A DNA stretch of 64,000 nucleotides. It comes from Siderastrea radians. Taxonomy: Eukaryota; Cnidaria; Anthozoa; Scleractinia; Rhizangiidae. Both the position numbers and the translations under genes were made by a program. The notes under the pieces are model-generated. The model worked only from the letters and a program-made list of their open reading frames with translations, made no database searches and was not told the DNA's origin. How positions within the stretch are numbered: the first letter of the stretch is position 1; each line of letters begins with the position of its first letter. The stretch covers positions 49,715,593 through 49,779,592 of the forward strand of contig OZ024890.1 of the NCBI GenBank assembly GCA_964017195.1, read 5' to 3'. Shown piece by piece: positions 2,235-13,129 of the stretch.

Positions 2235-2996
2235 ATGAATAGACAACTTGTATTATCATCCCATACAGTAAAAAACCAAAATGGTAATAAACCATCGGAT
2301 TTCACAATCAAATACCGTAATCCGATAATACTAGATTCAAACAGACAATATGAAATCGGCCTCGACCGAATCATTTCGATGTCATTCACATGGTTTAACA
2401 TTACGAGAGAACTCAATAATCAGAAAATAAGATATTCGACAGATAGTGGTGCTAATTGGACGGAAATTATATTCAACCCTGGAGTATGGAATTACATTGA
2501 TTTTGACAATTTAATCAAAGAAAAAACAAAAACAGGGACATCATCAAACCCTCAATATCCTATAACTCTTGAGTTTGACGATACAATATTTCGAACAATA
2601 ATAACACTTGCCTCAAATTACAGATTAGATCTTACTCAAAGTGATTTTAATGATCTTATTGGTTTCAATAAAAAGATTCTAACAAGTAGTGTAAATGTTG
2701 GAGATTACATTCCTAATCTCTCACAAGACAGAGAAATATTAAATGTTCATTGTGATTTGATAAGTGACAGTCTTGTCGATGGTGAAGAGTCAGATATTAT
2801 ATATATTTTCAGTACTTCAACTCTCACTCCGAGTTATAGTTTCACACAAGAGCCTCGACGAGTACAGTTTAATCCAGTCAATAAAAATACGATTAATAAA
2901 ATTCGGATTTATATCACCGACGGTAAACGAAGAATTATAGATCTTAATCATAGTGACACTTCATTCAGTTTGATTTTAAGAGAGAAGAGAGATTAA
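2235..2996 (+). CDS. Penton-like minor capsid protein
   Basis: A 253-residue protein immediately downstream of the PPxY protein gene. Position (just before the major capsid gene), size and predominance of beta-strand-like segments fit the single jelly-roll penton proteins of Polintons. A conserved-looking segment FNDLIGFNKKIL lies near residue 138, after a strand-rich N-terminus that begins RQLVLSSHT. It would form the fivefold vertices of an icosahedral capsid. No frame damage is visible. The assignment rests on synteny and overall resemblance rather than a catalytic signature. Confidence 0.7.
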   Translation: MNRQLVLSSHTVKNQNGNKPSDFTIKYRNPIILDSNRQYEIGLDRIISMSFTWFNITRELNNQKIRYSTDSGANWTEIIFNPGVWNYIDFDNLIKEKTKTGTSSNPQYPITLEFDDTIFRTIITLASNYRLDLTQSDFNDLIGFNKKILTSSVNVGDYIPNLSQDREILNVHCDLISDSLVDGEESDIIYIFSTSTLTPSYSFTQEPRRVQFNPVNKNTINKIRIYITDGKRRIIDLNHSDTSFSLILREKRD

Positions 2997-3014
2997 TCTA
3001 ACTAATAGTTATAC

Positions 3015-3383
3015 ATGGCATCATATGAATATAAACGTGTATATCACCCGAAACTAGGTCGTTTTGTGTATAAGCATAAAGGATCTGGGATTATTGTTGA
3101 TAACATATTCAAACCAGTTGGAAGGGTGTTAAGTAAAGTTCCAGAAATGGTTTTAAAACCTTTTGCCAAAAAAGCGCTTGAATCTGGTATTTCACATGCT
3201 GGAGACAAACTTGGAAAAAAAGCAGCTGAAAAAAGCGGAGAGCTTATTATGAGAAAATTACACGGTTTAACTAAACAACCAATGAATGAAATCGTGAAAC
3301 CAACCAAACCTACTAAACCAAAACAAGAAGACTACAACACAATTCTGAATAGACTTATATCTGGTACTGGATTAAGACGTTAA
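3015..3383 (+). CDS. Small basic virion protein (unknown family)
   Basis: A 122-residue lysine-rich protein between the penton-like and major capsid genes. The start is set by a variant of the late motif (TCTAACTAAT at 2998-3007). The N-terminus YKRVYHPKLGRFVYKHKGSG is followed by an amphipathic or hydrophobic stretch (about 35-85) and a PTKPTKPK linker near residues 98-105. A minor capsid or DNA-binding core role is likely from its charge and position in the structural block, but I do not recognise a domain. Confidence 0.6.
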   Translation: MASYEYKRVYHPKLGRFVYKHKGSGIIVDNIFKPVGRVLSKVPEMVLKPFAKKALESGISHAGDKLGKKAAEKSGELIMRKLHGLTKQPMNEIVKPTKPTKPKQEDYNTILNRLISGTGLRR

Positions 3384-3425: not shown

Positions 3426-4715
3426 ATGAGTTTCAGAACAAATGAAAATCTTCAACGATATGAATACGTTCGTTTCCATTTGGATAATGTCATTGAGCAA
3501 CCTGCTAACAATCAAAGCCAGAAAAAGACGGGTTACAGATTCACAATCAACGATCGGTCGACTATGTTTGATTTCTTCAATGGGTATTTCGAAGTAACTA
3601 AAGAGCTTCAAAAAAGGGCAGATGGTGCTGGATATGCTGCAGCAGATCGCATCACAATGATAAACGGATCTCACAGTCTAATCAGACATATGGTTATCAA
3701 ATCTTCAGGCAAAATCGTGTATGAGAGTGATAATTTGCATCGAATAACGAATGTGAAAAATCTCCTTGAATACAGCGATGATTATAGTAGATCCGTTGGA
3801 AAGAATTCGTTCTGGTATCTAGATACTGATGGAACTACAGCAGATACAAACACAGGTTTCGAAGCCCGTCGTATTTTAACCCAGGCTAATCAGAATGACG
3901 GCGGCGGAGGAGCTAAATCGATTAACGAGATGATTCCGTTAAACAGATACAGCTTTTTCCAAGAATTAGAAAGAAAAATGCTACCTCCAATGCAGCTCAC
4001 ATTTGAACTAACCCTGAACGACGATGATGAATTGATTCACAAAGCAGCAGCGGCTGACGATGGTCGTGTTGTAGTAAAGAGATTGTATCTTTGGCTACCA
4101 AGACTAATCCCAAAAGACAGTATGTATAGTAATTTCGTTTCAGAGTTTCTTAAGCCAACAACCTGGACATATATGCGAGATCTCTACAATCAGTCGGCAA
4201 ATACCAGAGCTATTCAGAATATGTTTCAAATCAGTCCAGCTATTGATAACGTTAAACATGTTTTTATTTATCTCCAGCGAACAGACGCACCGAATGATGT
4301 TGAAGCAGAGAGGAGTCCGTATTTGTTCGATACTTTCAAGTTGAATGCCGCTAACGCTAACAGCTCTCTATCAAGCTGTAGGCTTGAATATGGGAATAAC
4401 GTTTTTTACCCAGAGCTGGAATATGATAGTGACTCTAAAATACGGATATTTAATGATCTCATGTCATATGCATTTCGTAAGAACGATTACAATTCAGGAA
4501 CACAGCTTAATGTATCCAATTACACCAGTTTGTACGGATTATTGTATTTCGATTTGTTATATCAGAAAGAGGTAGTGACGAGAGATCCTAAACAGTTGAT
4601 TCTCCATTATCGTCTCAATGTAGCCCCAGCAGCAAACGTCCGAGCTCATAGCATCGTATTTTACGAGAGTGAGGTTGTTGTTAAGACAGTTGGAAACGAA
4701 TTGATGATAGTTTAA
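3426..4715 (+). CDS. Major capsid protein (hexon-like, double jelly roll)
   Basis: A 429-residue protein in the position occupied by the double jelly-roll major capsid protein in Polintons and adintoviruses. The segment IPLNRYSFFQELERKMLPPM (near residue 180) followed by a strand with TFELTLNDDDE is typical of this capsid family, and the C-terminal third again looks strand-rich. It would build the pseudo-hexagonal capsomers. The late motif TCTAAACTAATCA (3408-3420) lies directly before the ATG, one of the two best matches in the element. The frame is intact. Confidence 0.82.
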   Translation: MSFRTNENLQRYEYVRFHLDNVIEQPANNQSQKKTGYRFTINDRSTMFDFFNGYFEVTKELQKRADGAGYAAADRITMINGSHSLIRHMVIKSSGKIVYESDNLHRITNVKNLLEYSDDYSRSVGKNSFWYLDTDGTTADTNTGFEARRILTQANQNDGGGGAKSINEMIPLNRYSFFQELERKMLPPMQLTFELTLNDDDELIHKAAAADDGRVVVKRLYLWLPRLIPKDSMYSNFVSEFLKPTTWTYMRDLYNQSANTRAIQNMFQISPAIDNVKHVFIYLQRTDAPNDVEAERSPYLFDTFKLNAANANSSLSSCRLEYGNNVFYPELEYDSDSKIRIFNDLMSYAFRKNDYNSGTQLNVSNYTSLYGLLYFDLLYQKEVVTRDPKQLILHYRLNVAPAANVRAHSIVFYESEVVVKTVGNELMIV

Positions 4716-4789: not shown

Positions 4790-5620
4790 ATGACACAACT
4801 ATACGAAATTAAAGTTAGTTTATCACCAAACCAGAAAAAGAATCTTAGTAACGCGTATCATAAAAGAGAAACTATCGTTTTGAGACTGACAAAGGATTCA
4901 TTATCTGGGAATGACACTCTATACGTACCTCAGAATATAGTTAAGCGATTGGATAAAAATAGAAAATTGAAAAAGGGAATGGACATCAAACTAGCAAAAA
5001 CAAACATTCGAAAGCAAGTTGGTGGATCACTCCTCTCTACAGTTTTGAATCTGGGACGAACTTTTGTTCCCACTATTGCTAAGACTCTTGGATTGTCGGC
5101 TTTAGCTGGAGCAGCTAGTGAAGGAGCATCTCGGATCGTCAAAAAGATATCTGGAAAAGGAATTCAAACTGGTGGGTTTCTCATACCACAAAATAAAATC
5201 AACCAGTTGATAGCATATAAACATCTTTTGACCACAAAACAAAAACAAGATATATTAAATGCTCTACAAACAGGCTCTGGTGTTCATATAAAACCGACGA
5301 AAGTACAAACAGGTGGGTTCTTAGGTACTCTTCTTGCATCAATTGGAGTTCCTTTAGCTATTGAGGCAATAAAGAAGATCACTGGTAATGGTTCTCCTCG
5401 GATGGGACAGCCTAAACAAAGACCACCCAGATCTAACAATCAAAATGGTGGTTTGTTAGACCCAATGTATATAACTCCACCTTTTTATGGAAATTGGCCG
5501 AACGATACAATCGGTATGGGAATTAAAAAAAAAAGAAAAGCTCACAAAAAGGGCGACGGTCTGCTATTAGGAAAGAACTCACCCTTCAAAAAAGTCCCTC
5601 TTCTAAACATTTTGTTGTAA
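4790..5620 (+). CDS. pX/pVI-like virion core protein with four QxGG sites
   Basis: A 276-residue basic protein in the position of the adenoviral pX/pVI-like precursors of Polintons. Four matched sites are visible: QVGG (76-79), QTGG (126-129), QTGG (173-176) and QNGG (218-221), each followed by Ser, Phe, Phe or Leu. Adenain-type proteases cut after xxGG, so these are probable maturation sites that would release hydrophobic or amphipathic peptides (about 80-110 and 177-195). The C-terminal tail is lysine-rich. Near its 3' end, an A10 run (5525-5534) coincides with the opening of the protease frame, which is -1 relative to this gene. Role inferred: membrane lysis and/or DNA condensation during entry. 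Confidence 0.72.
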   Translation: MTQLYEIKVSLSPNQKKNLSNAYHKRETIVLRLTKDSLSGNDTLYVPQNIVKRLDKNRKLKKGMDIKLAKTNIRKQVGGSLLSTVLNLGRTFVPTIAKTLGLSALAGAASEGASRIVKKISGKGIQTGGFLIPQNKINQLIAYKHLLTTKQKQDILNALQTGSGVHIKPTKVQTGGFLGTLLASIGVPLAIEAIKKITGNGSPRMGQPKQRPPRSNNQNGGLLDPMYITPPFYGNWPNDTIGMGIKKKRKAHKKGDGLLLGKNSPFKKVPLLNILL

Positions 5621-6078
5621 AACCAAAATTCCATAACAATGTCCCATTAAGCAATTACGATTTAATAAAATGGTGTAAATATCTGAATATCCCAATTAAA
5701 GATGTTCTGTCTAGAGATGAATCAGTGCCCCACAATCATAGACAGGCTCTATTCATTTACAATCTTGAACCATCATATATGAGCGGTAGCCATTGGGTAT
5801 CCACATATGTGAAAGATAACGTGGTCAATTACTTTGATAGCTTTGGTTTACCTCCCTTCCAAGAAATTGTCAATCACGCAAGAAAAAAGAATTTAACACT
5901 TCTTCATCAAAATAACCAAATACAAAATTTAATGACGACAACATGTGGTTACTTTTGTTTATACTTTTTAAATGAGATGAATAAGGGCAAATCATATTTT
6001 GATCTGTTGGAAGTTTTCGACATATATGATACGACGAAGAATGAGAAATTCTTAGAACAGTATTTCAAAAATATCTAA
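5527..6078 (+). CDS. Adenain-like cysteine protease (no in-frame ATG)
   Basis: The protease matures virion precursor proteins. The catalytic His is in GSHWVS, an acidic residue in YFDSFG and the nucleophile in TTCGYFCLYF, in the order seen in adenain-like Ulp1-fold proteases. The conserved N-terminal part (LSNYDLIKWCKYLN) lies upstream of the first possible start codon in frame, GTG 5725, so that start would truncate the fold. The frame is open from 5527, directly after TAA at 5524-5526, and contains no ATG. The nearest ATG (5639) is in another frame and stops after three codons. Either the protease is made by -1 slippage at the A10 run in the upstream gene, or a 1-nt indel near the CCC at 5642-5644 has cut it off from that ATG. 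Confidence 0.8.
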   Translation, partial: KKKKSSQKGRRSAIRKELTLQKSPSSKHFVVKPKFHNNVPLSNYDLIKWCKYLNIPIKDVLSRDESVPHNHRQALFIYNLEPSYMSGSHWVSTYVKDNVVNYFDSFGLPPFQEIVNHARKKNLTLLHQNNQIQNLMTTTCGYFCLYFLNEMNKGKSYFDLLEVFDIYDTTKNEKFLEQYFKNI

Positions 6079-6089
6079 CTCATACATAT

Positions 6090-6491
6090 ATGAGATCATA
6101 TTGCGTGAAACAAAAAAAGGTCACAGAATGTGTAACCGGGAGTGAACGATATGAAAAGGCTAAAAATGGGAGGCTTATGCTTAAATGCAAATGCTCTGAA
6201 TGTGGTATTACAAAAACCAAATTCATCAAAAGCCAAAAGGGAGGTGAAAATCCATTAGGTAAAGCTTTTGAGGCAGCCAAAATAGCCGAACAAATAACTC
6301 GCAAAGTAATTCCATGAACCAACCATGTATTTGACCGATATTGGTCTGGTGATATTTTGAAAGGTGCTTTTAATAATAAAACAGGTATAACAAGCAAGAA
6401 ATTCTGGACTAAACCAAAGAAGGGTACTGTTATGCGTTTGGTGAAAAATCCGAAAACTGGTAAATATGAAAACGTATATATTGAACCTTAA
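6090..6491 (+). pseudogene. Zinc-ribbon protein, first copy, with in-frame TGA
   Basis: The first 75 codons encode a Cys-rich module: SYCVKQKK, then TECV, then KCKCSECGITKTKF, closely matching the ORF at 6513. A TGA at 6315-6317 interrupts it, but the same frame continues for 57 codons (visible segments YWSGDILKGAFNN and KFWTKPKKGTVMRLV) to TAA at 6489-6491. The tail has no ATG near its start, so it was probably part of this protein. A CGA-to-TGA transition would explain the stop; programmed readthrough is possible but the following base context (ACC) is not a known leaky one. The late motif TCTAACTCAT lies at 6074-6083. Function of the zinc ribbon is unknown. Confidence 0.65.
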
Positions 6492-6492
6492 T

Positions 6493-6512
6493 CTAATCTA
6501 ATCATATTATAT
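6493..6512 (+). promoter_or_regulatory. Late-type promoter motif before the second zinc ribbon
   Basis: TCTAATCTAATCATATTAT directly precedes the ATG at 6513 and starts 2 nt after the stop of the preceding ORF. The half-motif CTAAT is duplicated here. Confidence 0.5.
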
Positions 6513-6698
6513 ATGAAATCATATTGCGTGAAACAGAAGAAACAGACAGAATGCGTTCCTGGTTCTGAAAGAGTTGTAAAAGCCAAAAATGGGAGATCAA
6601 TGATGAAGTGTACTTGTGCTGAATGTGGTATTACAAAGACGAAATTCGTTAAACAGGCGGGAAACGGGGTCGCCCGTCGAAAGGGGCGGGCGTACTAG
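6513..6698 (+). CDS. Zinc-ribbon protein, second copy; 0-frame leader of a likely frameshift fusion
   Basis: A 61-residue ORF paralogous to the one at 6090: SYCVKQKKQTECV followed by KCTCAECGITKTKFVK, giving a four-cysteine ribbon. After the ribbon the frame continues only 14 codons to TAG (6696-6698). The PLA2 frame is -1 relative to this ORF and opens at 6653. The overlap holds GGGAAAC (6659-6665) in the correct phase (G GGA AAC), then a 5-nt spacer, then an 8-bp GC-rich hairpin. I infer that this ORF ends two ways: as a short protein and, after frameshifting, as the N-terminus of the PLA2 protein. Loss of one base in the G run is the alternative. Confidence 0.72.
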   Translation: MKSYCVKQKKQTECVPGSERVVKAKNGRSMMKCTCAECGITKTKFVKQAGNGVARRKGRAY

Positions 6699-7360
6699 AT
6701 ACAGTAGCATCAACTGGTGCTGATTTATTGATTCACCACGGTATTCCTTGGCTTGGAAAAAAGGCAGTTGAAATGGGAAGATATTATGGATCAGAAGCCT
6801 TGAGAAACCCAAAACTGCAAAAAAAGGCTATCGATTATGCTCTGGATAAGTTGAATCCAGTGATTCAGAATGTTGGAAGTCAAGCTCTTGATCAATTATC
6901 TACTAAAATCAGACCAAATAGAAAGTATAAAACCAACAGAAAGGATTTGGATGGTGGTAGTTTAGATATACATAAACTAATTGGGAAAATACCGAAACCA
7001 AAAGCTGGATGGACTCCTGGAAAGTATAAATACATGGGACCATACAATCCTCTCGATAAACAGTTAGAGTATGATAGGAACACTGGAGAGGTCACCAAGT
7101 GGCACGTACAACCTTACAATAAAGTGGATGAAATAGCAGCTCATCATGATATTTGTTATGATATGGGGAAAAACAAAGGTGAATGTGACAAACAAATGGT
7201 CAAGTCATTGGATGGAATACCTTATGGACAGATGCCAAAATGGGGGCAAACAGCTCGGTTCTTGATTAACACGAAGCAGAAACTAGGTCTTGGTCTAAAT
7301 CAAAGGAAGCCAAAAAACGGGAAAGGCCGTCGAGTGAAGAAAACTGGCAAGAAAAATTAG
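6653..7360 (+). CDS. PLA2-domain capsid protein (parvovirus-type phospholipase A2)
   Basis: The frame is open from 6653 and has no ATG near its beginning, consistent with entry by frameshift; conserved-looking sequence (TVASTGADLLIHHGIPWLGK) begins before TTG 6728, the first near-cognate start. The C-terminal half carries the secreted/parvoviral PLA2 signature: calcium loop YMGPYNPLDKQ and catalytic HHDICYD, about 35 residues apart. In parvoviruses this enzyme breaches the endosomal membrane during entry; the same role is inferred here. The tail is very basic. The 3' end overlaps the integrase frame, with the slippery heptamer AAAAAAC at 7312-7318. Confidence 0.78.
   Translation, partial: TGGKRGRPSKGAGVLDTVASTGADLLIHHGIPWLGKKAVEMGRYYGSEALRNPKLQKKAIDYALDKLNPVIQNVGSQALDQLSTKIRPNRKYKTNRKDLDGGSLDIHKLIGKIPKPKAGWTPGKYKYMGPYNPLDKQLEYDRNTGEVTKWHVQPYNKVDEIAAHHDICYDMGKNKGECDKQMVKSLDGIPYGQMPKWGQTARFLINTKQKLGLGLNQRKPKNGKGRRVKKTGKKN
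6659..6692 (+). other. Candidate -1 ribosomal frameshift signal, zinc ribbon to PLA2
   Basis: The slippery heptamer GGGAAAC occupies 6659-6665 with 0-frame codons GGA AAC. The spacer is GGGGT (6666-6670). The hairpin pairs CGCCCGTC (6671-6678) with GGCGGGCG (6685-6692), seven Watson-Crick pairs and one G-U, with a 6-nt loop. The -1 frame opens only 6 nt before the heptamer. X XXY YYZ, a 5-9 nt spacer and a stable stem are the known requirements in retroviruses; GGGAAAC itself is a retroviral gag-pro site. Confidence 0.65.
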
Positions 7361-7405
7361 CTGATGAGCTTCATAAACCTATAAAACGTAACTTTACTCG
7401 GCGGC
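7312..7405 (+). other. Candidate -1 ribosomal frameshift signal, PLA2 to integrase
   Basis: Heptamer AAAAAAC (7312-7318) is in the exact phase A AAA AAC relative to the PLA2 frame. The spacer is GGGAAAG (7319-7325). A 14-bp helix pairs 7326-7339 (GCCGTCGAGTGAAG) with 7392-7405 (CTTTACTCGGCGGC), twelve Watson-Crick pairs and two G-U, enclosing a 52-nt loop that contains the small AGCT...AGCT hairpin (7359-7370). The PLA2 frame stops at 7358-7360 and the -1 frame is the integrase. Confidence 0.7.
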
Positions 7406-8277
7406 GTGTAATTGTAAACGGCATTGACGAGATATGGTGTTCAGATCTTATTGAGATGCAACAGTTTAGTCAATGGAACGCTGGCTACAGATATCTTCTT
7501 ATGGTTTTAGATGTATTCTCTAAATACGGTTGGATCGTCCCATTAAAGGACAAAAAAGGAGAAACCGTTATGAATGCTTTTAAAACAATCCTTAAAGAAG
7601 GTAGAAAACCGGAATATTTATGGACAGACAAAGGCAAAGAGTATTACAACAAACATGTTAAGGAACTACTTGATAAGAATAATATAACCTTGTACTCAAC
7701 TGAGAATGAGGAAAAGTCGTCAGTTTGTGAAAGATGGAACAGAACAATTAAAACCAAGATGTGGAAGCAGTTTACTGTTCAAGGTAATACAAAGTATTTA
7801 GACATGCTACCCAAATTAGTGAAACAGTATAACAACAATAAACATTCAAGCATAAAGATGACGCCTACAGAAGCAAGTAAAAAGAAGAATGAGTCGACTG
7901 TTTACTTTAATCTGTATGGTGATATGGAGCAAGTATCATCTAAACCGAAATTCAAAATAGGTGATAAGGTCAGAATAAGTAAGTATAAACGGAATGTGTT
8001 TGATAAGGGCTATACACCAAATTGGTCTGAGGAAGTTTTTACAGTTGATAAAATCCAATATACGAATCCAATAACTTACAAACTAAAGGATCTCAGAGGT
8101 GAAGACATTCAAGGGAGTTTTTATGAACCTGAATTATTAAAAGCAAAACAAGAGGTATTCAGAATTGATAAAGTCATTCGGAGAGATTATAAAAAGAAGC
8201 AAGCTTTGGTGAAGTGGAAGGGGTATAGTGATGAATTTAACAGTTGGATACCGTTCAAGGACTTGAAGGATATATAA
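7318..8277 (+). CDS. DDE integrase with C-terminal chromodomain, in the -1 frame
   Basis: A retrovirus/Polinton-type rve integrase. The triad is D in EIWCSDLIEM, D in WTDKGKEYY, and E in VCERWNRT. A chromodomain follows at the C-terminus (FRIDKVIRRDY ... ALVKWKGYSDEFNSWIP), expected to steer integration to methylated histones. The first in-frame ATG (7456) lies after the first catalytic Asp, so starting there would give a dead enzyme. The frame is open back to 7270 with no ATG, overlapping the PLA2 ORF in -1 phase. The segment ENWQEKLADELHKP, which reads like normal integrase N-terminal sequence, begins inside the overlap, right after the heptamer. I therefore start the feature at the predicted slip site. 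Confidence 0.82.
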   Translation, partial: RERPSSEENWQEKLADELHKPIKRNFTRRRVIVNGIDEIWCSDLIEMQQFSQWNAGYRYLLMVLDVFSKYGWIVPLKDKKGETVMNAFKTILKEGRKPEYLWTDKGKEYYNKHVKELLDKNNITLYSTENEEKSSVCERWNRTIKTKMWKQFTVQGNTKYLDMLPKLVKQYNNNKHSSIKMTPTEASKKKNESTVYFNLYGDMEQVSSKPKFKIGDKVRISKYKRNVFDKGYTPNWSEEVFTVDKIQYTNPITYKLKDLRGEDIQGSFYEPELLKAKQEVFRIDKVIRRDYKKKQALVKWKGYSDEFNSWIPFKDLKDI

Positions 8278-8411
8278 AAATGGTTTAAAGAGAATTATCT
8301 AATATATATTATATCAATCGATACAGTATATACTGTCTTTTGCTTTTGGTAGCCAAAAATATAATTGTTTCTGGCGATCTTATTTAAACATAAAATAATA
8401 TAGTATATAAT
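8278..8411 (+). promoter_or_regulatory. Spacer between late and replication modules, with palindrome and early-type box
   Basis: It contains a perfect 14-bp palindrome ACAGTATATACTGT (8323-8336), TATTTAAAC (8381-8389) and ATAGTATATA (8400-8409) two bases before the ATG at 8412. The last two recur before the polymerase gene (9544-9552 and 9584-9593). Early/replicative promoter elements are inferred. Confidence 0.5.
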
Positions 8412-9221
8412 ATGGAAAATTTCATTTATGAAGGAAAAAAACTGGACATTATCAAAAAGGATGATGATATATGGTTCCGTGCTAAGATTGTTGCTAACAT
8501 CTTAAAGTATACAAATACTCGTAAAGCTATTCGTGATCATGTTGATTTGGAAGATAAAATTACATTAAACGACCTCAAATCTTGGGGGAACGAATCGTTC
8601 CCCCTAAAAAATAACCATGTGATTTATATAAATGAATCCGGACTGTATAGCCTCATTTTGAGATCTGATATGGATAAAGCAAAGGAATTCAAACGATGGG
8701 TCACAAAAGATGTTTTACCATCAATCAGAAAAAATGGACGGTATGAATATAACCACAAACCCTTTAAAATGTTAACTTTTAATATACAGTCAGAGTATGA
8801 CTTACATAAAAAAGTGGTTAACTTTATAAGAAACAATTATCCAAAAGCACTTTTAAATGCAACATTAGGTGAAAACCAAATAAATAGTAATATGAGATTA
8901 AGATCTTATAATATGGGTTATCAAAAAGGATCTCCTGATCTAATCATACAGAATTTACATATGAGGTATTCAGGTTTCGCGATTGAATTTAAATCTCCAT
9001 CTGGAAATGGAAAGTTATCAGATGAACAACAAATAATGTTACAAGAATGTGGAAATAACAATTTCAAAGTGTTGGTTAGTAATGATTATGATGAGATTAT
9101 AAAAGAAATTATCCATTATTTTGATGGAGTTAGGATAAAATGCAATCATTGTTCCAGAAAATTCAAGTCAACAGAAACATTAAAGAATCATTCGAATTAC
9201 ATACATATAAAGAGAAAATAA
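8412..9221 (+). CDS. BRO-N / VRR-NUC-like nuclease / C2H2 zinc-finger fusion protein
   Basis: A 269-residue three-part protein. Residues 1-115 form a BRO-N domain (IWFRAKIVANILKY near 20-33, then ESGLYSLILRSD and KRWVTKDVLPSIRKNG), the DNA-binding module of baculovirus BRO and many large-virus proteins. Residues 130-235 look like a VRR-NUC-type PD-(D/E)xK nuclease, with GSPDLII and FAIEFKSPSG giving the D...ExK residues. The last 28 residues are a C2H2 finger (CNHCSRKFKSTETLKNH then YIH). Likely roles are resolving or nicking replication intermediates, or regulation; the exact role is unknown. The gene has early-type upstream boxes, and its frame is intact. Confidence 0.72.
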   Translation: MENFIYEGKKLDIIKKDDDIWFRAKIVANILKYTNTRKAIRDHVDLEDKITLNDLKSWGNESFPLKNNHVIYINESGLYSLILRSDMDKAKEFKRWVTKDVLPSIRKNGRYEYNHKPFKMLTFNIQSEYDLHKKVVNFIRNNYPKALLNATLGENQINSNMRLRSYNMGYQKGSPDLIIQNLHMRYSGFAIEFKSPSGNGKLSDEQQIMLQECGNNNFKVLVSNDYDEIIKEIIHYFDGVRIKCNHCSRKFKSTETLKNHSNYIHIKRK

Positions 9222-9483: not shown

Positions 9484-9601
9484 TAATCTTTTTTCATATA
9501 GTTCAAGGGATCCTATGTTTTGGATCATTTGAATTATTGACAATATTTAAACGGACTAATTGAAAACACTTAAAAGAATATCTATAGTATATATATATAG
9601 A
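9484..9601 (+). promoter_or_regulatory. Upstream region of the polymerase gene
   Basis: TATTTAAAC (9544-9552) and ATAGTATATA (9584-9593) match the boxes before the BRO gene. The latter is followed by an AT run and the ATG at 9602. Confidence 0.45.
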
Positions 9602-12600
9602 ATGGAAAAATATAATCATATAAATATGAACAAGAAAGATCTGAAGAAACTCAGTAAAAGTCAATTAATCAATCTGCTTCTGAAGCAATCTGTGATGAAG
9701 CCTAAAATTATTGTGGTAGATGATACCAAACCAGTTCCAGCACCAAGGACTTATAAACCAAGACCACCAGTACCAACACCTCGCAAGAGTGTCAAACAGA
9801 TGGCTAAAGAATATGAAGAAAACATCATTCTTCCACCTCCAGAATTCAGGGATAATTATAAACCCATTCCAGCACCAAGAACCAAAAAACCAATGGATAA
9901 ACCAGTTCCAACACCAAGAACCATAATAAAACAAACAGACAAAGCTTTAAAAGGTTACACTAAGTCATTTGAAATCAGCATCAGAAACAATAAAGACCCC
10001 TTAGCCCAAATGCAAAACACCAGAAAGGCAATAGAACACAGTGTAATTAGTTTGTTGAATGAAATGAAAGGCTTGAAATACGTTGAAACATTGAAAGTCA
10101 CATTCAATAAAATGTCTAATGGTGAAATAGTTGAAAAGCCAGCATATTTCAATAGTAAATCTCAAACAATTATTAACAATACAGAAATCAATGAAGCATT
10201 ACAAATGTCTAAACAAAATATCTTAAACAAGATATCCCAGTGGATATCAGAAGGTTCAGGATGGACGGTACAATCAGTTGATAGCCATTACCTCAACATT
10301 GTCAAATACAAGCCCATGAAAGGATCCTCATATATCCAACTGCCTTCTGAACTGCGAAATAGTGCTAAGGGACTAATTAACATGAAAAATGAAGATAATG
10401 AATGTTTCAGATGGTGTCATATCCGACACTTAAACCCACAAGAGAAATATCCTCAAAGGATTAAAAAAGTCGATAAACCATACGTTGAAAAGTTAGATTA
10501 CTCAGATGTTGAATTTCCAGTTGGTGTCAAACATTATAACAAAATTGAGAAGCAAAACAGTATCAATATAAACGTATTCGGATACGAAAACAAAGAGCCA
10601 TATCCCATCTATGTTTCCAAAGAAAAGTATGAAGATCATATGGAACTACTTCTGATAACAAGAAATGAAAACAAGCATTATGTTCTCATAAAGGATTTCA
10701 ACAAGTTCATGTATAATCAAACAAAACACAAAGAGAAGAAACACTTTTGTATGTACTGTATGCAATGTTTCAGTTCCGACAGGGTTCTAAACAATCATAA
10801 ATACATTTGCATACAAGTGAATGGTACTCAAGCAATAAAAATGCCAGACAAAGACAATAACATACTGAAATTCAACAACTTTCATAAACAGCAACCTGTG
10901 CCATTTGTCATTTATGCTGATTTTGAGGCTATAACAGAGAAGATTCATGGATGTCAACAAGACGGTAATAAATCATACACCGAAGCTTACCAAAGGGATA
11001 CAGACTGTGGTCATGGGTATAAAGTGGTTTGTTGTTATGATGACAAATATACAAAACCAATACAAATATATAGAGGAGAAAAGGCTGTGTACAAATTCAT
11101 GGAAAATATGTTAGAAGAAGTGAAATACTGTAAAAAAGTTATGAAGACATTTTTCAACAAACCATTAAAAATGACAAAAGAGAATGAAGAGAAATTTGAA
11201 AAAGCAACAACATGTCACATCTGTGATAAAAAATATACTGAAAAAGACATACGAGTCAGAGATCATTGCCATATTACTGGCAAATACAGAGGCTCAGCTC
11301 ATCAAGAATGTAATCTCAAACTCAGAATAAATCCACAAGAAATTAAAATTCCAGTGATCTTCCACAATCTGAGAGGATATGACAGTCATTTTATAATGCA
11401 AGAGATTGGAGCTATTGTTAAGAAACATGCATACAAAAATAAGAATGGAGAGGAGAAACAAATGAATATCAATGCCATACCGAACAATATGGAAAAATAT
11501 ATGGCTTTCATGCTTGGTAATCATCTGACATTCATTGACAGTTTCCAATTCATGAGCTCAAGTTTGGATAAATTAGTCAGCAACTTACCAGCAGAAGCTT
11601 TAAAGTATACAAACAAAAAATTCAAAGGTGGAAAATTCGAATTGATGACGCGTAAGGGAGTTTATCCTTACGATTACATGGATAGTTTCGAAAAATTCAA
11701 TAAAACAGAATTACCAACAAAAGAAGAATTTTACAGCATATTGAGTGATGAACACATAACAGATGAAGATTATCAACATGCTAAAAATGTTTGGAACACT
11801 TTCAAATTACAATCAATGGGTGAATACCATAATCTATATCTTAAGTCTGATATCCTTTTATTAGCTGATGTATTCGAAAACTTCCGTAAGACCTGTCTTA
11901 AGTATTACAAACTTGATCCCTGTCACTACTTTACATCTCCTGGTTTGTCATGGGATGCTATGTTGAAGATGACCAATATCAAATTGGAACTAATGACAGA
12001 CATAGACATGTTTCAATTCATTGAAAAAGGTATGCGTGGTGGTATATCTTATATAGCCAATCGATATGGAAAAGCAAACAATAAGTACATGAGAGAATAC
12101 GACGAGAAGGCGCCCTCAAAGTATATCATGTATCTTGATGCTAACAACCTTTACGGTTGGGCTATGAGTCAATATCTCCCCACTGGCGGTTTCAAATGGA
12201 TGACAGAAAAGCAGATTAACAATATAGATTTAGCTAAATATAATGAAAACAGTGAAAAAAGATTAATATTAGAAGTTGATTTAGAATACCCCAAAGAGTT
12301 GCATGACCTTCATAACGACTACCCATTAGCTGCAGAAAGGGTTTGTGTAAATAAAAATATGTTGTCTGAGTATTGCAAAAAGATACAGAAAAAGTTTAAC
12401 ATATCAACAGGACTAGTACACAAATTAATTCCTACATTAAGCAACAAAGAAAAATATGTCTTGCACTACAGAAACCTTCAGCTGTATCTTGATCTTGGAT
12501 TGAAAGTAAAGAAAGTGCACAGAGTATTAGAATTCAATCAGTCACCTTGGCTCAAACAATACATTAACTTCAATACACAAAAACGTACTCAAGCGAAAAA

Positions 12601-13129
12601 TTCATTCAAAAAAGATTTCTTCAAGCTAATGAATAACTCAGTGTTTGGAAAGACAATGGAGAACATAAGAAAGAGAGTTGATGTCAGACTTATTACTGAT
12701 GAAAAGAAATTATTGAAAATGGCTTCTAAACCAACTTATGTAAGTAGCAAAATATTCAATGAAAATCTGGTGGCAGTGCATAAAATCAAAGAAACACTAA
12801 CCCTAAACAGGCCAGCATATGTGGGTATGTGTATTCTTGATCTAAGTAAGAGATTAATGTATGATTTTCATTATAACTACATAAAAGAAAAGTATGGAAG
12901 CAAAGCCAAGCTGCTCTTCACTGACACAGACAGTCTGACATATGAGATTGAAGCTGAAGATGTTTACCAAGACTTTTGGAATAACAAAGATCTATTCGAC
13001 AACAGTGACTATCCTGAAAACTCACTTTATTTCGATAAGACAAACAAAAAGGTAATCGGTAAATTCAAAGATGAAGCAGCTGGAATACCAATCATAGAAT
13101 TCATAGGTTTGCGATCAAAAAATGTATAG
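9602..13129 (+). CDS. Protein-primed family B DNA polymerase, broken near its C-terminus
   Basis: Replicates the element. Start 9602 is favoured over 9560 because the early box lies just before it; 9626 is another option. Numbering from 9560: a proline-rich N-terminus with four PxPxPR motifs (about 58-118), a CxxC...H zinc-finger-like segment (about 395-417), exonuclease I YADFEA (near 453), an endonuclease-VII-like CHICDKKYTEKD...DHCHITGKYRG block (about 552-585), exo II FHNLRGYDSH (near 600), exo III YLKSDILLLADVF (near 760), motif A YLDANNLYG (near 857), motif B KLMNNSVFGK (near 1022) and motif C FTDTDSL (near 1119). The frame stops at 13,127-13,129, and the C-terminal region continues in the +1 frame at 13,122. 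The switch falls on an A6 run (13,117-13,122), after every catalytic motif. Confidence 0.9.
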   Translation: MEKYNHINMNKKDLKKLSKSQLINLLLKQSVMKPKIIVVDDTKPVPAPRTYKPRPPVPTPRKSVKQMAKEYEENIILPPPEFRDNYKPIPAPRTKKPMDKPVPTPRTIIKQTDKALKGYTKSFEISIRNNKDPLAQMQNTRKAIEHSVISLLNEMKGLKYVETLKVTFNKMSNGEIVEKPAYFNSKSQTIINNTEINEALQMSKQNILNKISQWISEGSGWTVQSVDSHYLNIVKYKPMKGSSYIQLPSELRNSAKGLINMKNEDNECFRWCHIRHLNPQEKYPQRIKKVDKPYVEKLDYSDVEFPVGVKHYNKIEKQNSININVFGYENKEPYPIYVSKEKYEDHMELLLITRNENKHYVLIKDFNKFMYNQTKHKEKKHFCMYCMQCFSSDRVLNNHKYICIQVNGTQAIKMPDKDNNILKFNNFHKQQPVPFVIYADFEAITEKIHGCQQDGNKSYTEAYQRDTDCGHGYKVVCCYDDKYTKPIQIYRGEKAVYKFMENMLEEVKYCKKVMKTFFNKPLKMTKENEEKFEKATTCHICDKKYTEKDIRVRDHCHITGKYRGSAHQECNLKLRINPQEIKIPVIFHNLRGYDSHFIMQEIGAIVKKHAYKNKNGEEKQMNINAIPNNMEKYMAFMLGNHLTFIDSFQFMSSSLDKLVSNLPAEALKYTNKKFKGGKFELMTRKGVYPYDYMDSFEKFNKTELPTKEEFYSILSDEHITDEDYQHAKNVWNTFKLQSMGEYHNLYLKSDILLLADVFENFRKTCLKYYKLDPCHYFTSPGLSWDAMLKMTNIKLELMTDIDMFQFIEKGMRGGISYIANRYGKANNKYMREYDEKAPSKYIMYLDANNLYGWAMSQYLPTGGFKWMTEKQINNIDLAKYNENSEKRLILEVDLEYPKELHDLHNDYPLAAERVCVNKNMLSEYCKKIQKKFNISTGLVHKLIPTLSNKEKYVLHYRNLQLYLDLGLKVKKVHRVLEFNQSPWLKQYINFNTQKRTQAKNSFKKDFFKLMNNSVFGKTMENIRKRVDVRLITDEKKLLKMASKPTYVSSKIFNENLVAVHKIKETLTLNRPAYVGMCILDLSKRLMYDFHYNYIKEKYGSKAKLLFTDTDSLTYEIEAEDVYQDFWNNKDLFDNSDYPENSLYFDKTNKKVIGKFKDEAAGIPIIEFIGLRSKNV

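What the first reader, a model, noticed from the sequence alone, without database searches (positions are those of the whole stretch)
7270..7456. PLA2-to-integrase overlap has a complete -1 frameshift signal (A AAA AAC, 7-nt spacer, 14-bp stem)
The integrase frame has no ATG before its first catalytic Asp, is -1 to the PLA2 ORF and overlaps it by about 90 nt. In that overlap AAAAAAC (7312-7318) sits in exact phase, a 7-nt spacer follows, and 7326-7339 pairs with 7392-7405 in 14 consecutive pairs (two G-U). This matches established retroviral -1 frameshift architecture. It would make integrase a low-abundance C-terminal extension of a capsid-associated protein, a gag-pol-like way to package integrase in a DNA element. 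I know of no description of this in Polintons.
Basis: partly seen in the sequence, partly recalled or inferred. Interest (0 to 1): 0.9.

Follow-up and report, generated by a model that had tools for sequence, protein, structure and literature searches.

The report
Tandem ribosomal frameshifts to transposon integrase
A large virus-like DNA transposon in an animal genome appears to make its integrase by letting ribosomes slip back one base at two places in a row, a trick known from retroviruses but, as far as these searches show, not described for the integrase of such elements.

Summary
AAAAAAC (7312-7318) lies in exact -1 phase in the PLA2/integrase overlap, followed by a 7-nt spacer and a 14-bp stem. 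The heptamer is present in 110 of 110 copies fetched (own included); frames are -1 in all 96 that could be parsed. Two further copies carry TTTAAAC, another strong slippery heptamer. The stem is far better than synonymous recoding gives (z -4.0), but one sub-lineage lacks it and covariation is not significant.

PLA2 has no start codon at its own N-terminus either: its frame is entered from a 61-aa zinc-ribbon-like ORF (6513-6698) through a second in-phase heptamer, GGGAAAC (6659-6665), with a GC-rich hairpin (z -4.1). It is in phase in 105 of 105 parsable copies, and the preceding codon varies (GCG, CAG, ACG, GTG, TCG, AAG) but always ends in G. Codon periodicity switches frame at this junction. 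Some relatives are predicted with the same modules in one chain.

Best reading: tandem -1 frameshifting, zinc ribbon > PLA2 > integrase, as in beta- and deltaretroviruses. The protease-like frame also lacks an ATG and sits behind an A-run. Frameshifting, protein ratio and packaging are untested.

The parts
6513..6698 (+). short zinc-ribbon-like ORF (61 aa, starts with ATG, ends TAG 6696-6698): first module of the proposed chain
   Evidence: cysteine pattern read by eye; third-position variation 0.276 against 0.080/0.051 in its frame upstream of the overlap
6659..6665 (+). slippery heptamer 1, G GGA AAC, in phase for a -1 shift from the zinc-ribbon frame to the PLA2 frame
   Evidence: in phase in 105 of 105 copies with both anchors (104 of them -1); 5 of 110 not parsed
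6671..6692 (+). GC-rich hairpin 5 nt after heptamer 1 (6671-6678 pairs with 6685-6692; spacer 5 or 6 nt among copies)
   Evidence: -20 kcal/mol for 6666-6710, z -4.08
6653..6698 (+). overlap of zinc-ribbon and PLA2 frames; the PLA2 frame is closed by TAA at 6650-6652
   Evidence: TAA in 73 of 108 copies
6653..7360 (+). PLA2 ORF, PF08398 (Phospholip_A2_4); no ATG in its first 40 codons (first ATG 6773); stop TAG 7358-7360
7270..7360 (+). overlap of PLA2 and integrase frames; the integrase frame is closed by TAA at 7267-7269
7312..7318 (+). slippery heptamer 2, A AAA AAC, in phase for a -1 shift from PLA2 to integrase
   Evidence: 110 of 110 copies
7326..7405 (+). stimulator candidate: 14-bp stem 7326-7339 / 7392-7405 with a 52-nt loop, after a 7-nt spacer
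7270..8277 (+). integrase frame: rve core (PF00665) and C-terminal chromodomain (PF00385), no ATG before the first catalytic Asp
4790..5620 (+). 276-aa protein upstream of the protease-like frame; presumed capsid precursor (role not tested)
5525..5534 (+). A10 run at which the protease-like frame opens, -1 to the upstream ORF
5527..6078 (+). protease-like frame (adenain-like by eye; no Pfam hit), without ATG before its conserved PLSNYDLIKW stretch

Best explanation
The genes at 6513-8277 of this Polinton/Maverick-like element are most likely read from one mRNA by two successive programmed -1 ribosomal frameshifts. Ribosomes start at the ATG of a 61-aa zinc-ribbon-like ORF. At G GGA AAC, stalled by a GC-rich hairpin, a fraction slips back into the PLA2 frame. 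At A AAA AAC (U UUA AAC in some copies), with a stem 7 nt downstream, a fraction of those slips back into the integrase frame. The products would be a nested set with a common N-terminus: zinc ribbon; zinc ribbon-PLA2; zinc ribbon-PLA2-integrase, the integrase version being the rarest. Shown by sequence: phases, heptamers, missing start codons, conservation among copies, switch of coding periodicity at junction 1, relatives predicted with the same modules in one chain. Inferred: that slippage occurs, its efficiency, that both shifts act on one mRNA, and that linkage serves to fix the ratio or package integrase with PLA2.
For: Junction 2: in-phase A AAA AAC in 110 of 110 copies, frames -1 in 96 of 96 parsable; 35 of 40 further stretches keep a canonical in-phase heptamer with -1 frames, two of them T TTA AAC (L119, L167). 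The codon before AAA AAC codes T, P, K, I, A or S yet ends in A in all 139 cases that the script placed (of 150 loci). Stem. Junction 1: in-phase G GGA AAC in 105 of 105 copies with both anchors, the preceding codon (GCG 68, CAG 20, ACG 9, GTG 5, TCG 2, AAG 1) always ending in G although GCG, ACG and TCG make up 5, 8 and 7% of their codon families here; hairpin z -4.08; 10 of the 105 copies form a hairpin from different letters at the same place. Frame entry is boxed in: TAA just before the PLA2 frame in 73 of 108 copies, yet the 74 nt between the zinc-ribbon stop and the first PLA2 ATG show PLA2-frame codon periodicity (0.053, 0.018, 0.135). Full chain open, as far as fetched, in 85 of 110 copies. 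Relatives with PLA2 and integrase in one predicted protein: 33 of 120 listed, among them P0004 and P0032 with a zinc-ribbon-like start too. [quoted passage not shown] G GGA AAC and A AAA AAC are retroviral sites, and beta- and deltaretroviruses use double frameshifts (PMC3835772, passages and part of a table).
Against: No reporter, ribosome-profiling or peptide data. Covariation in stem 2 is not significant; the two both-sides changes counted in hairpin 1 come from two rows whose hairpin is displaced by one base, so I do not count them, and 17 of 105 copies fold their 27-nt stretch there into a different register. A sub-lineage (L111, L112, L114, L115, L118, L130) keeps heptamer 2 but lacks the 14-bp stem and has only a weaker hairpin (-13.2 kcal/mol; p 0.08 to 0.19 against synonymous controls at 50-60 nt, 0.46 at 45 nt). 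43 of 96 copies have some ATG in the integrase frame upstream of the conserved part, ten of them just before the conserved stretch, overlapping the PLA2 stop, so ordinary initiation could serve there. One single-frame copy has lost the heptamer (L165). All DNA comes from one genome and the 120 copies are 90-100% identical in integrase, so counts are not independent. PLA2 could also start at ATG 6773, bypassing shift 1. An in-phase A AAA AAC also occurs inside an unrelated gene at 2270.
Confidence: 0.85

Rival explanations
1. Integrase (and PLA2) are started independently, by leaky scanning, reinitiation or internal entry at AUGs in the downstream frame, such as ATG 7240 inside PLA2 or the ATGA overlap of one sub-lineage.
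For: 43 of 96 parsable copies have an ATG in the integrase frame upstream of the conserved part; in ten of them (L013, L024, L039, L041, L061, L080, L089, L090, L091, L093) an ATG overlaps the PLA2 stop; 8 of 105 copies have an ATG in the PLA2 frame upstream of the junction.
Against: 53 of 96 copies have no such ATG; the window copy and up to 64 of 110 carry TAA at 7267-7269, downstream of the ATG at 7240; the differences there look synonymous for PLA2 (by eye). 97 of 105 lack one for PLA2. Some database 'M' starts are TTG: P0034 starts with M where its DNA in L111 reads TTG. Does not explain heptamers, phase or structures.
Confidence: 0.07
2. Splicing joins the frames; the heptamers are incidental.
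For: One annotated relative (P0077, Oculina patagonica) is a PLA2-integrase model lacking the linker, which may be a predicted splice.
Against: The stretch before the conserved integrase start is purine-rich, without an obvious pyrimidine tract (by eye; splice sites were not scored). Splicing would not need in-phase canonical heptamers at both junctions. No transcript data were available.
Confidence: 0.04
3. RNA polymerase slippage at the A-run, not ribosomal slippage, changes the frame.
For: Plausible for the protease junction: runs of 9-20 A, with all three frame relations among copies. Slippage on runs of 9 A is documented in bacteria (PMC5009743, passage).
Against: At junction 2 the run is only six A and the frame relation is fixed; T TTA AAC copies and G GGA AAC at junction 1 have no comparable run.
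Confidence: 0.03
4. Heptamers and stems are by-products of dual coding and recent ancestry; the integrase frame is not translated through them.
For: Copies are close relatives; overlaps are constrained in two frames anyway; covariation is weak.
Against: The residue before each heptamer changes while its third base does not; exchange to U UUA AAC; frame-specific selection switches at junction 1; the stem exceeds synonymous controls.
Confidence: 0.03

Closest known systems
Beta- and deltaretroviral gag-pro-pol double -1 frameshifting (e.g. MPMV, MMTV, HTLV-1)
   Same: Two successive -1 shifts; [quoted passage not shown] integrase in the last frame and a small zinc-binding module upstream of the shift (both recalled for retroviruses).
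   Different: A DNA element with a polymerase-sized ORF and packaging ATPase, not a retroelement; the middle frame is a PLA2 domain, not protease; no reverse transcriptase found in the last frame; the protease-like frame sits elsewhere behind an A-run. Zinc-binding here is read from cysteines only.
Polinton/Maverick (Polintoviricetes) and adintovirus integrases
   Same: rve integrase with C-terminal chromodomain, A32-like packaging ATPase, PolB-sized ORF, presumed capsid proteins and protease.
   Different: The passages read list integrase among the genes without mention of frameshifting (PMC8097293, PMC11071296, PMC11071308). -1 slippery sites are suggested for adintovirus Penton and Hexon-Adenain only.
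Bacterial insertion sequences with frameshifted transposase (recalled; not searched)
   Same: A -1 slip on A-rich heptamers makes an integrase-fold transposase as a fusion.
   Different: Prokaryotic, one shift, no capsid genes.

Membership tests
programmed -1 ribosomal frameshift site | canonical X XXY YYZ heptamer in zero-frame phase within an overlap of offset -1 frames | tested here: met
   Both junctions:
programmed -1 ribosomal frameshift site | stable structure about 5-9 nt downstream | tested here: met
   the 14-bp stem is absent in the LSNYDDW sub-lineage
programmed -1 ribosomal frameshift site | structure conserved by compensatory change | tested here: inconclusive
programmed -1 ribosomal frameshift site | frameshift product above background | not testable with these tools
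   needs reporter or peptides
Polinton/Maverick | rve integrase with chromodomain | tested here: met
Polinton/Maverick | FtsK/HerA-type packaging ATPase | tested here: met
   PF04665 Pox_A32, E 1.4e-6, 460-1107 minus
Polinton/Maverick | protein-primed family B polymerase | tested here: inconclusive
   1189-aa ORF at 9560-13129 looks like PolB by motif, recalled; Pfam gave only Endonuclease_7
[quoted passage not shown]
   429-aa ORF 3426-4715: no PDB sequence hit, model pLDDT 29, meaningless
Polinton/Maverick | adenain/Ulp1-type cysteine protease | tested here: inconclusive
   no Pfam hit; motifs by eye only
Polinton/Maverick | terminal inverted repeats and target-site duplication | not tested
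   the element seems to run off the left end of the window; I did not fetch it whole
retrovirus | reverse transcriptase downstream of the shifts | tested here: not met
   Pfam finds only rve and Chromo in the frame after the second shift

The most novel reading that the evidence does not exclude
A lineage of DNA transposons with presumed capsid genes expresses a nested zinc ribbon-PLA2-integrase polyprotein through two tandem -1 frameshifts with retroviral-grade heptamers, and its protease as a slippage-dependent extension of an upstream virion protein: a gag-pro-pol-like programme evolved in a double-stranded DNA element, whose frames have fused into one ORF in some relatives.
Probability: 0.7. 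Interest if true: 0.92.

Novelty: new variant of a known kind. Interest (0 to 1): 0.87.

Why it matters
Retroviruses use frameshifting to make little integrase and to carry it into the particle attached to a structural protein (recalled). Finding the same logic, with two tandem sites, in a DNA element with its own integrase and presumed capsid genes would show that it can arise independently of reverse transcription. It predicts which fusion proteins to look for in particles of these elements, which a 2021 paper says have not been observed (PMC8097293, start of abstract seen). It would also explain why plain ORF calls fragment their integrase, PLA2 and protease. Every step can be tested with short reporter constructs.

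Tried and rejected
Relatives in IMG/VR: two scans gave pattern hits but no confirmed relative. Rfam on 6500-8400: nothing up to E 5. Single-sequence structure of the 429-aa presumed capsid protein: pLDDT 29, discarded. PDB sequence search: PLA2 had two chance-level hits (parvovirus VP1 E 0.41, myotilin E 0.58); integrase matched integrases and chromodomains. PHROGs: nothing useful. My first alignment mixed strands and was redone. A script with a wrong codon phase failed and was redone. In one search the entries for L001, L003 and L008 are misparsed (L001 and L003 have CCA AAA AAC) and four loci were not placed. The 108 of 108 heptamer count is circular (segments were picked by the motif) and is not used. 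My motif script for fusions missed P0023 and P0042, which carry both Pfam domains, and added P0040, which lacks the PLA2 label. Considered and dropped: the idea from protein lists that many relatives have ATG-started integrases, because the listed M is TTG in the one case where I had DNA; the idea that KN/LN at PLA2 C-termini of other genomes proves the heptamer (103 of 107 tails placed by a loose pattern), because it is amino-acid evidence only.
Full report
WHAT IS THERE. The window holds a Polinton/Maverick-like element from its left edge to beyond 13 kb: an A32-like ATPase (460-1107, minus), several presumed virion proteins, a protease-like ORF, PLA2 (PF08398), integrase with rve core and chromodomain (PF00665, PF00385), a Bro-N/VRR_NUC protein and a polymerase-sized ORF. 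In the host genome (805 Mb, 439 contigs) the integrase search had 2804 first-look candidates, of which 120 were scored, all 90-100% identical. One named relative of the integrase is from the coral Oculina patagonica; that the host is a stony coral is my inference.

THE OBSERVATION. Every element of the finding is present at the stated coordinates. The zero frame reads AAA AAC, the change is -1, the spacer 7 nt, the stem 14 bp. The fold has z -3.15 against dinucleotide shuffles. Against synonymous recodings of the integrase side it has z -4.0, so protein coding does not explain the stem. Two neighbouring CGG codons (8% of Arg codons in the element) build its 3' arm; 105 of the 108 copies matched by the pattern have CGG CGG or CGA CGG there, while the stem-less sub-lineage writes the corresponding arginines as AGA.

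COPIES, JUNCTION 2. I fetched 110 of the 120 listed copies, the window's own included. All 110 have AAAAAAC in the aligned columns. In 96 both frame anchors could be parsed and all 96 are -1 with the heptamer in phase; 14 could not be parsed. Insertions and deletions of different lengths lie in the overlap and keep the offset. Variation upstream of the heptamer sits mostly at PLA2 third positions and fades about 18 nt before it. Of 40 further stretches chosen for odd frame lengths or a different sub-lineage, 35 have -1 frames and a canonical in-phase heptamer: 33 AAAAAAC and two TTTAAAC, L119 and L167. The other five are three single-frame PLA2-integrase ORFs (L116 and L166 with AAAAAAC still present, L165 without) and two that look broken (L120, L121). 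In L119 and L167 the 7-nt spacer and the 5' arm of the stem are as elsewhere, and the stem forms.

STEM. In 5, 53 and 52 of 110 copies 12, 13 and 14 of the 14 5'-arm bases pair with the downstream side, mean -25.7 kcal/mol, 77 distinct haplotypes. In a test of 18 chosen loci, 12 with the stem have z -2.3 to -4.2 against synonymous controls and six of the LSNYDDW sub-lineage have none. That sub-lineage has a weaker local hairpin starting 6 nt after its AAAAAAC; against synonymous controls p is 0.46, 0.08, 0.11 and 0.19 at 45, 50, 55 and 60 nt. Pair counting over 93 distinct rows (five odd loci left out before the alignment) gives 96.8% paired cells but no significant covariation.

While checking how PLA2 starts I found that its frame, like the integrase frame, has no ATG at its beginning and lies -1 to a short upstream ORF, 6513-6698, whose product has a cysteine pattern like a zinc ribbon. 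In the 46-nt overlap lies G GGA AAC, 6659-6665, in exact phase. In the first 30 copies it is present in 30 of 30, frames -1 in 29. In all 110: 104 are -1 with the in-phase heptamer, one has it but a shifted frame, three lacked a parsable zinc-ribbon anchor (their printed sequence contains GGGAAAC) and two lacked a PLA2 anchor. The preceding codon encodes Ala, Gln, Thr, Val, Ser or Lys and always ends in G, although such codons are uncommon here: GCG 5%, ACG 8%, TCG 7%, GTG 17%, CAG 26%, AAG 30% of their families. A hairpin of 7-8 mostly G-C pairs follows 5-6 nt later, -20 kcal/mol for 6666-6710, z -4.08. Ten of the 105 copies form a hairpin of other letters at the same place, and 17 fold the 27-nt stretch in another register.

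FRAME SWITCH. Upstream of the overlap the variation has the period of the zinc-ribbon frame (0.080, 0.051, 0.276 for codon positions 1, 2, 3). Between the zinc-ribbon stop and the first PLA2 ATG it has the period of the PLA2 frame (0.053, 0.018, 0.135). So the PLA2 frame seems to be translated before its first ATG. In 73 of 108 copies TAA stands immediately before the overlap in the PLA2 frame, which leaves the overlap as the place of entry. In 85 of 110 copies the whole chain is open as far as fetched: ATG, GGGAAAC, uninterrupted PLA2 frame, AAAAAAC and at least 90 integrase codons; 6 more are partial, 17 have the middle frame interrupted or out of phase, 2 lack a placed heptamer pair.

RELATIVES ELSEWHERE. 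The integrase search found 7301 proteins and listed 120; of these 33 carry both PLA2 and rve domains (32 by my script). P0004 and P0032 begin with a zinc-ribbon-like module too. These sets seem to be plain bacterial-style ORF calls: P0034 starts with M where its DNA, matched at 100% in this genome, has TTG. Hence the fusions are probably contiguous ORFs, except perhaps P0077, which comes from an annotated genome. Of 120 listed PLA2 relatives 107 had a tail that a loose pattern could place, and 103 of these show KN or LN there, as A AAA AAC or U UUA AAC would encode. This is suggestive only, without DNA.

PROTEASE. The protease-like frame (5527-6078) also has no ATG before its conserved start and overlaps the upstream 276-aa ORF in -1 at an A10 run. 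Of 34 stretches examined (window and 33 loci, seven of the loci being wider re-fetches of copies already taken), 17 could be parsed: 11 are -1, 3 are in one frame, 3 in the third frame; longest A-runs 9 to 20. Of 120 listed relatives of the upstream protein, 30 are fused to the protease. Here the frame floats with the A-run, so transcript slippage is as likely as ribosomal frameshifting.

MECHANISM. Tandem -1 frameshifting explains all of this with one mRNA. [quoted passage not shown] The first two are listed for many retroviral sites, mostly with 6 or 7 in what I take to be the spacer column (header not seen), and beta- and deltaretroviruses shift twice (PMC3835772, passages). Independent initiation, splicing, transcript slippage and chance are less likely for the reasons given under the rivals. 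None is excluded by experiment.

NOVELTY. Searches for polinton/maverick with frameshift, ribosomal frameshift or programmed ribosomal frameshifting, adintovirus with frameshift, virophage with ribosomal frameshift, and frameshifting with DNA transposons showed no listing that describes frameshifting at a Polinton integrase. I looked at the frameshift passages of nine papers from these lists (PMC11071296, PMC8097293, PMC12567637, PMC10120064, PMC12721341, PMC8363768, PMC8547959, PMC6905037, PMC10675110): only PMC11071296 speaks of programmed frameshifting in such elements, for adintovirus Penton and Hexon-Adenain ORFs. The other papers on the lists were not opened, and the library lacks most subscription journals.

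None of this moved the odds.

Noticed in passing
4790-6078, A-run 5525-5534: The protease-like frame lacks an ATG and lies -1 behind an A10 run; among copies run length (9-20) and frame relation vary, and 30 of 120 listed relatives of the upstream protein are single-chain fusions.
   Followed up: partly
6090-6317: A second zinc-ribbon-headed ORF with its own ATG (6090) precedes the 61-aa one; the window copy stops at TGA 6315-6317 where other copies such as L003 read on (read by eye).
   Followed up: no
L116, L165, L166: Rare copies in which PLA2 and integrase have become one open frame; L165 has lost the heptamer.
   Followed up: partly
7240 (integrase frame) and 6623 (PLA2 frame): At both junctions an ATG in the downstream frame lies inside the upstream gene and is followed by a stop in the window copy but not in some copies: the same layout twice (by eye).
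   Followed up: partly
8394-9221: Bro-N domain joined to a VRR_NUC nuclease domain in one ORF; a 2025 paper calls a (Bro)-N-VRR-NUC fusion in a dinoflagellate polinton-like virus not previously described (PMC12721341, passage cut at its start).
   Followed up: no
whole genome G000: 2804 to 3019 first-look integrase candidates per search, of which only 120-126 were scored; most scored ones have open frames: a sign of a recent large expansion.
   Followed up: no
L142, L173: These copies carry a clearly different version of the upstream virion-protein C-terminus (GIPLLGAIL/GALL), hinting at module exchange between sub-lineages.
   Followed up: no
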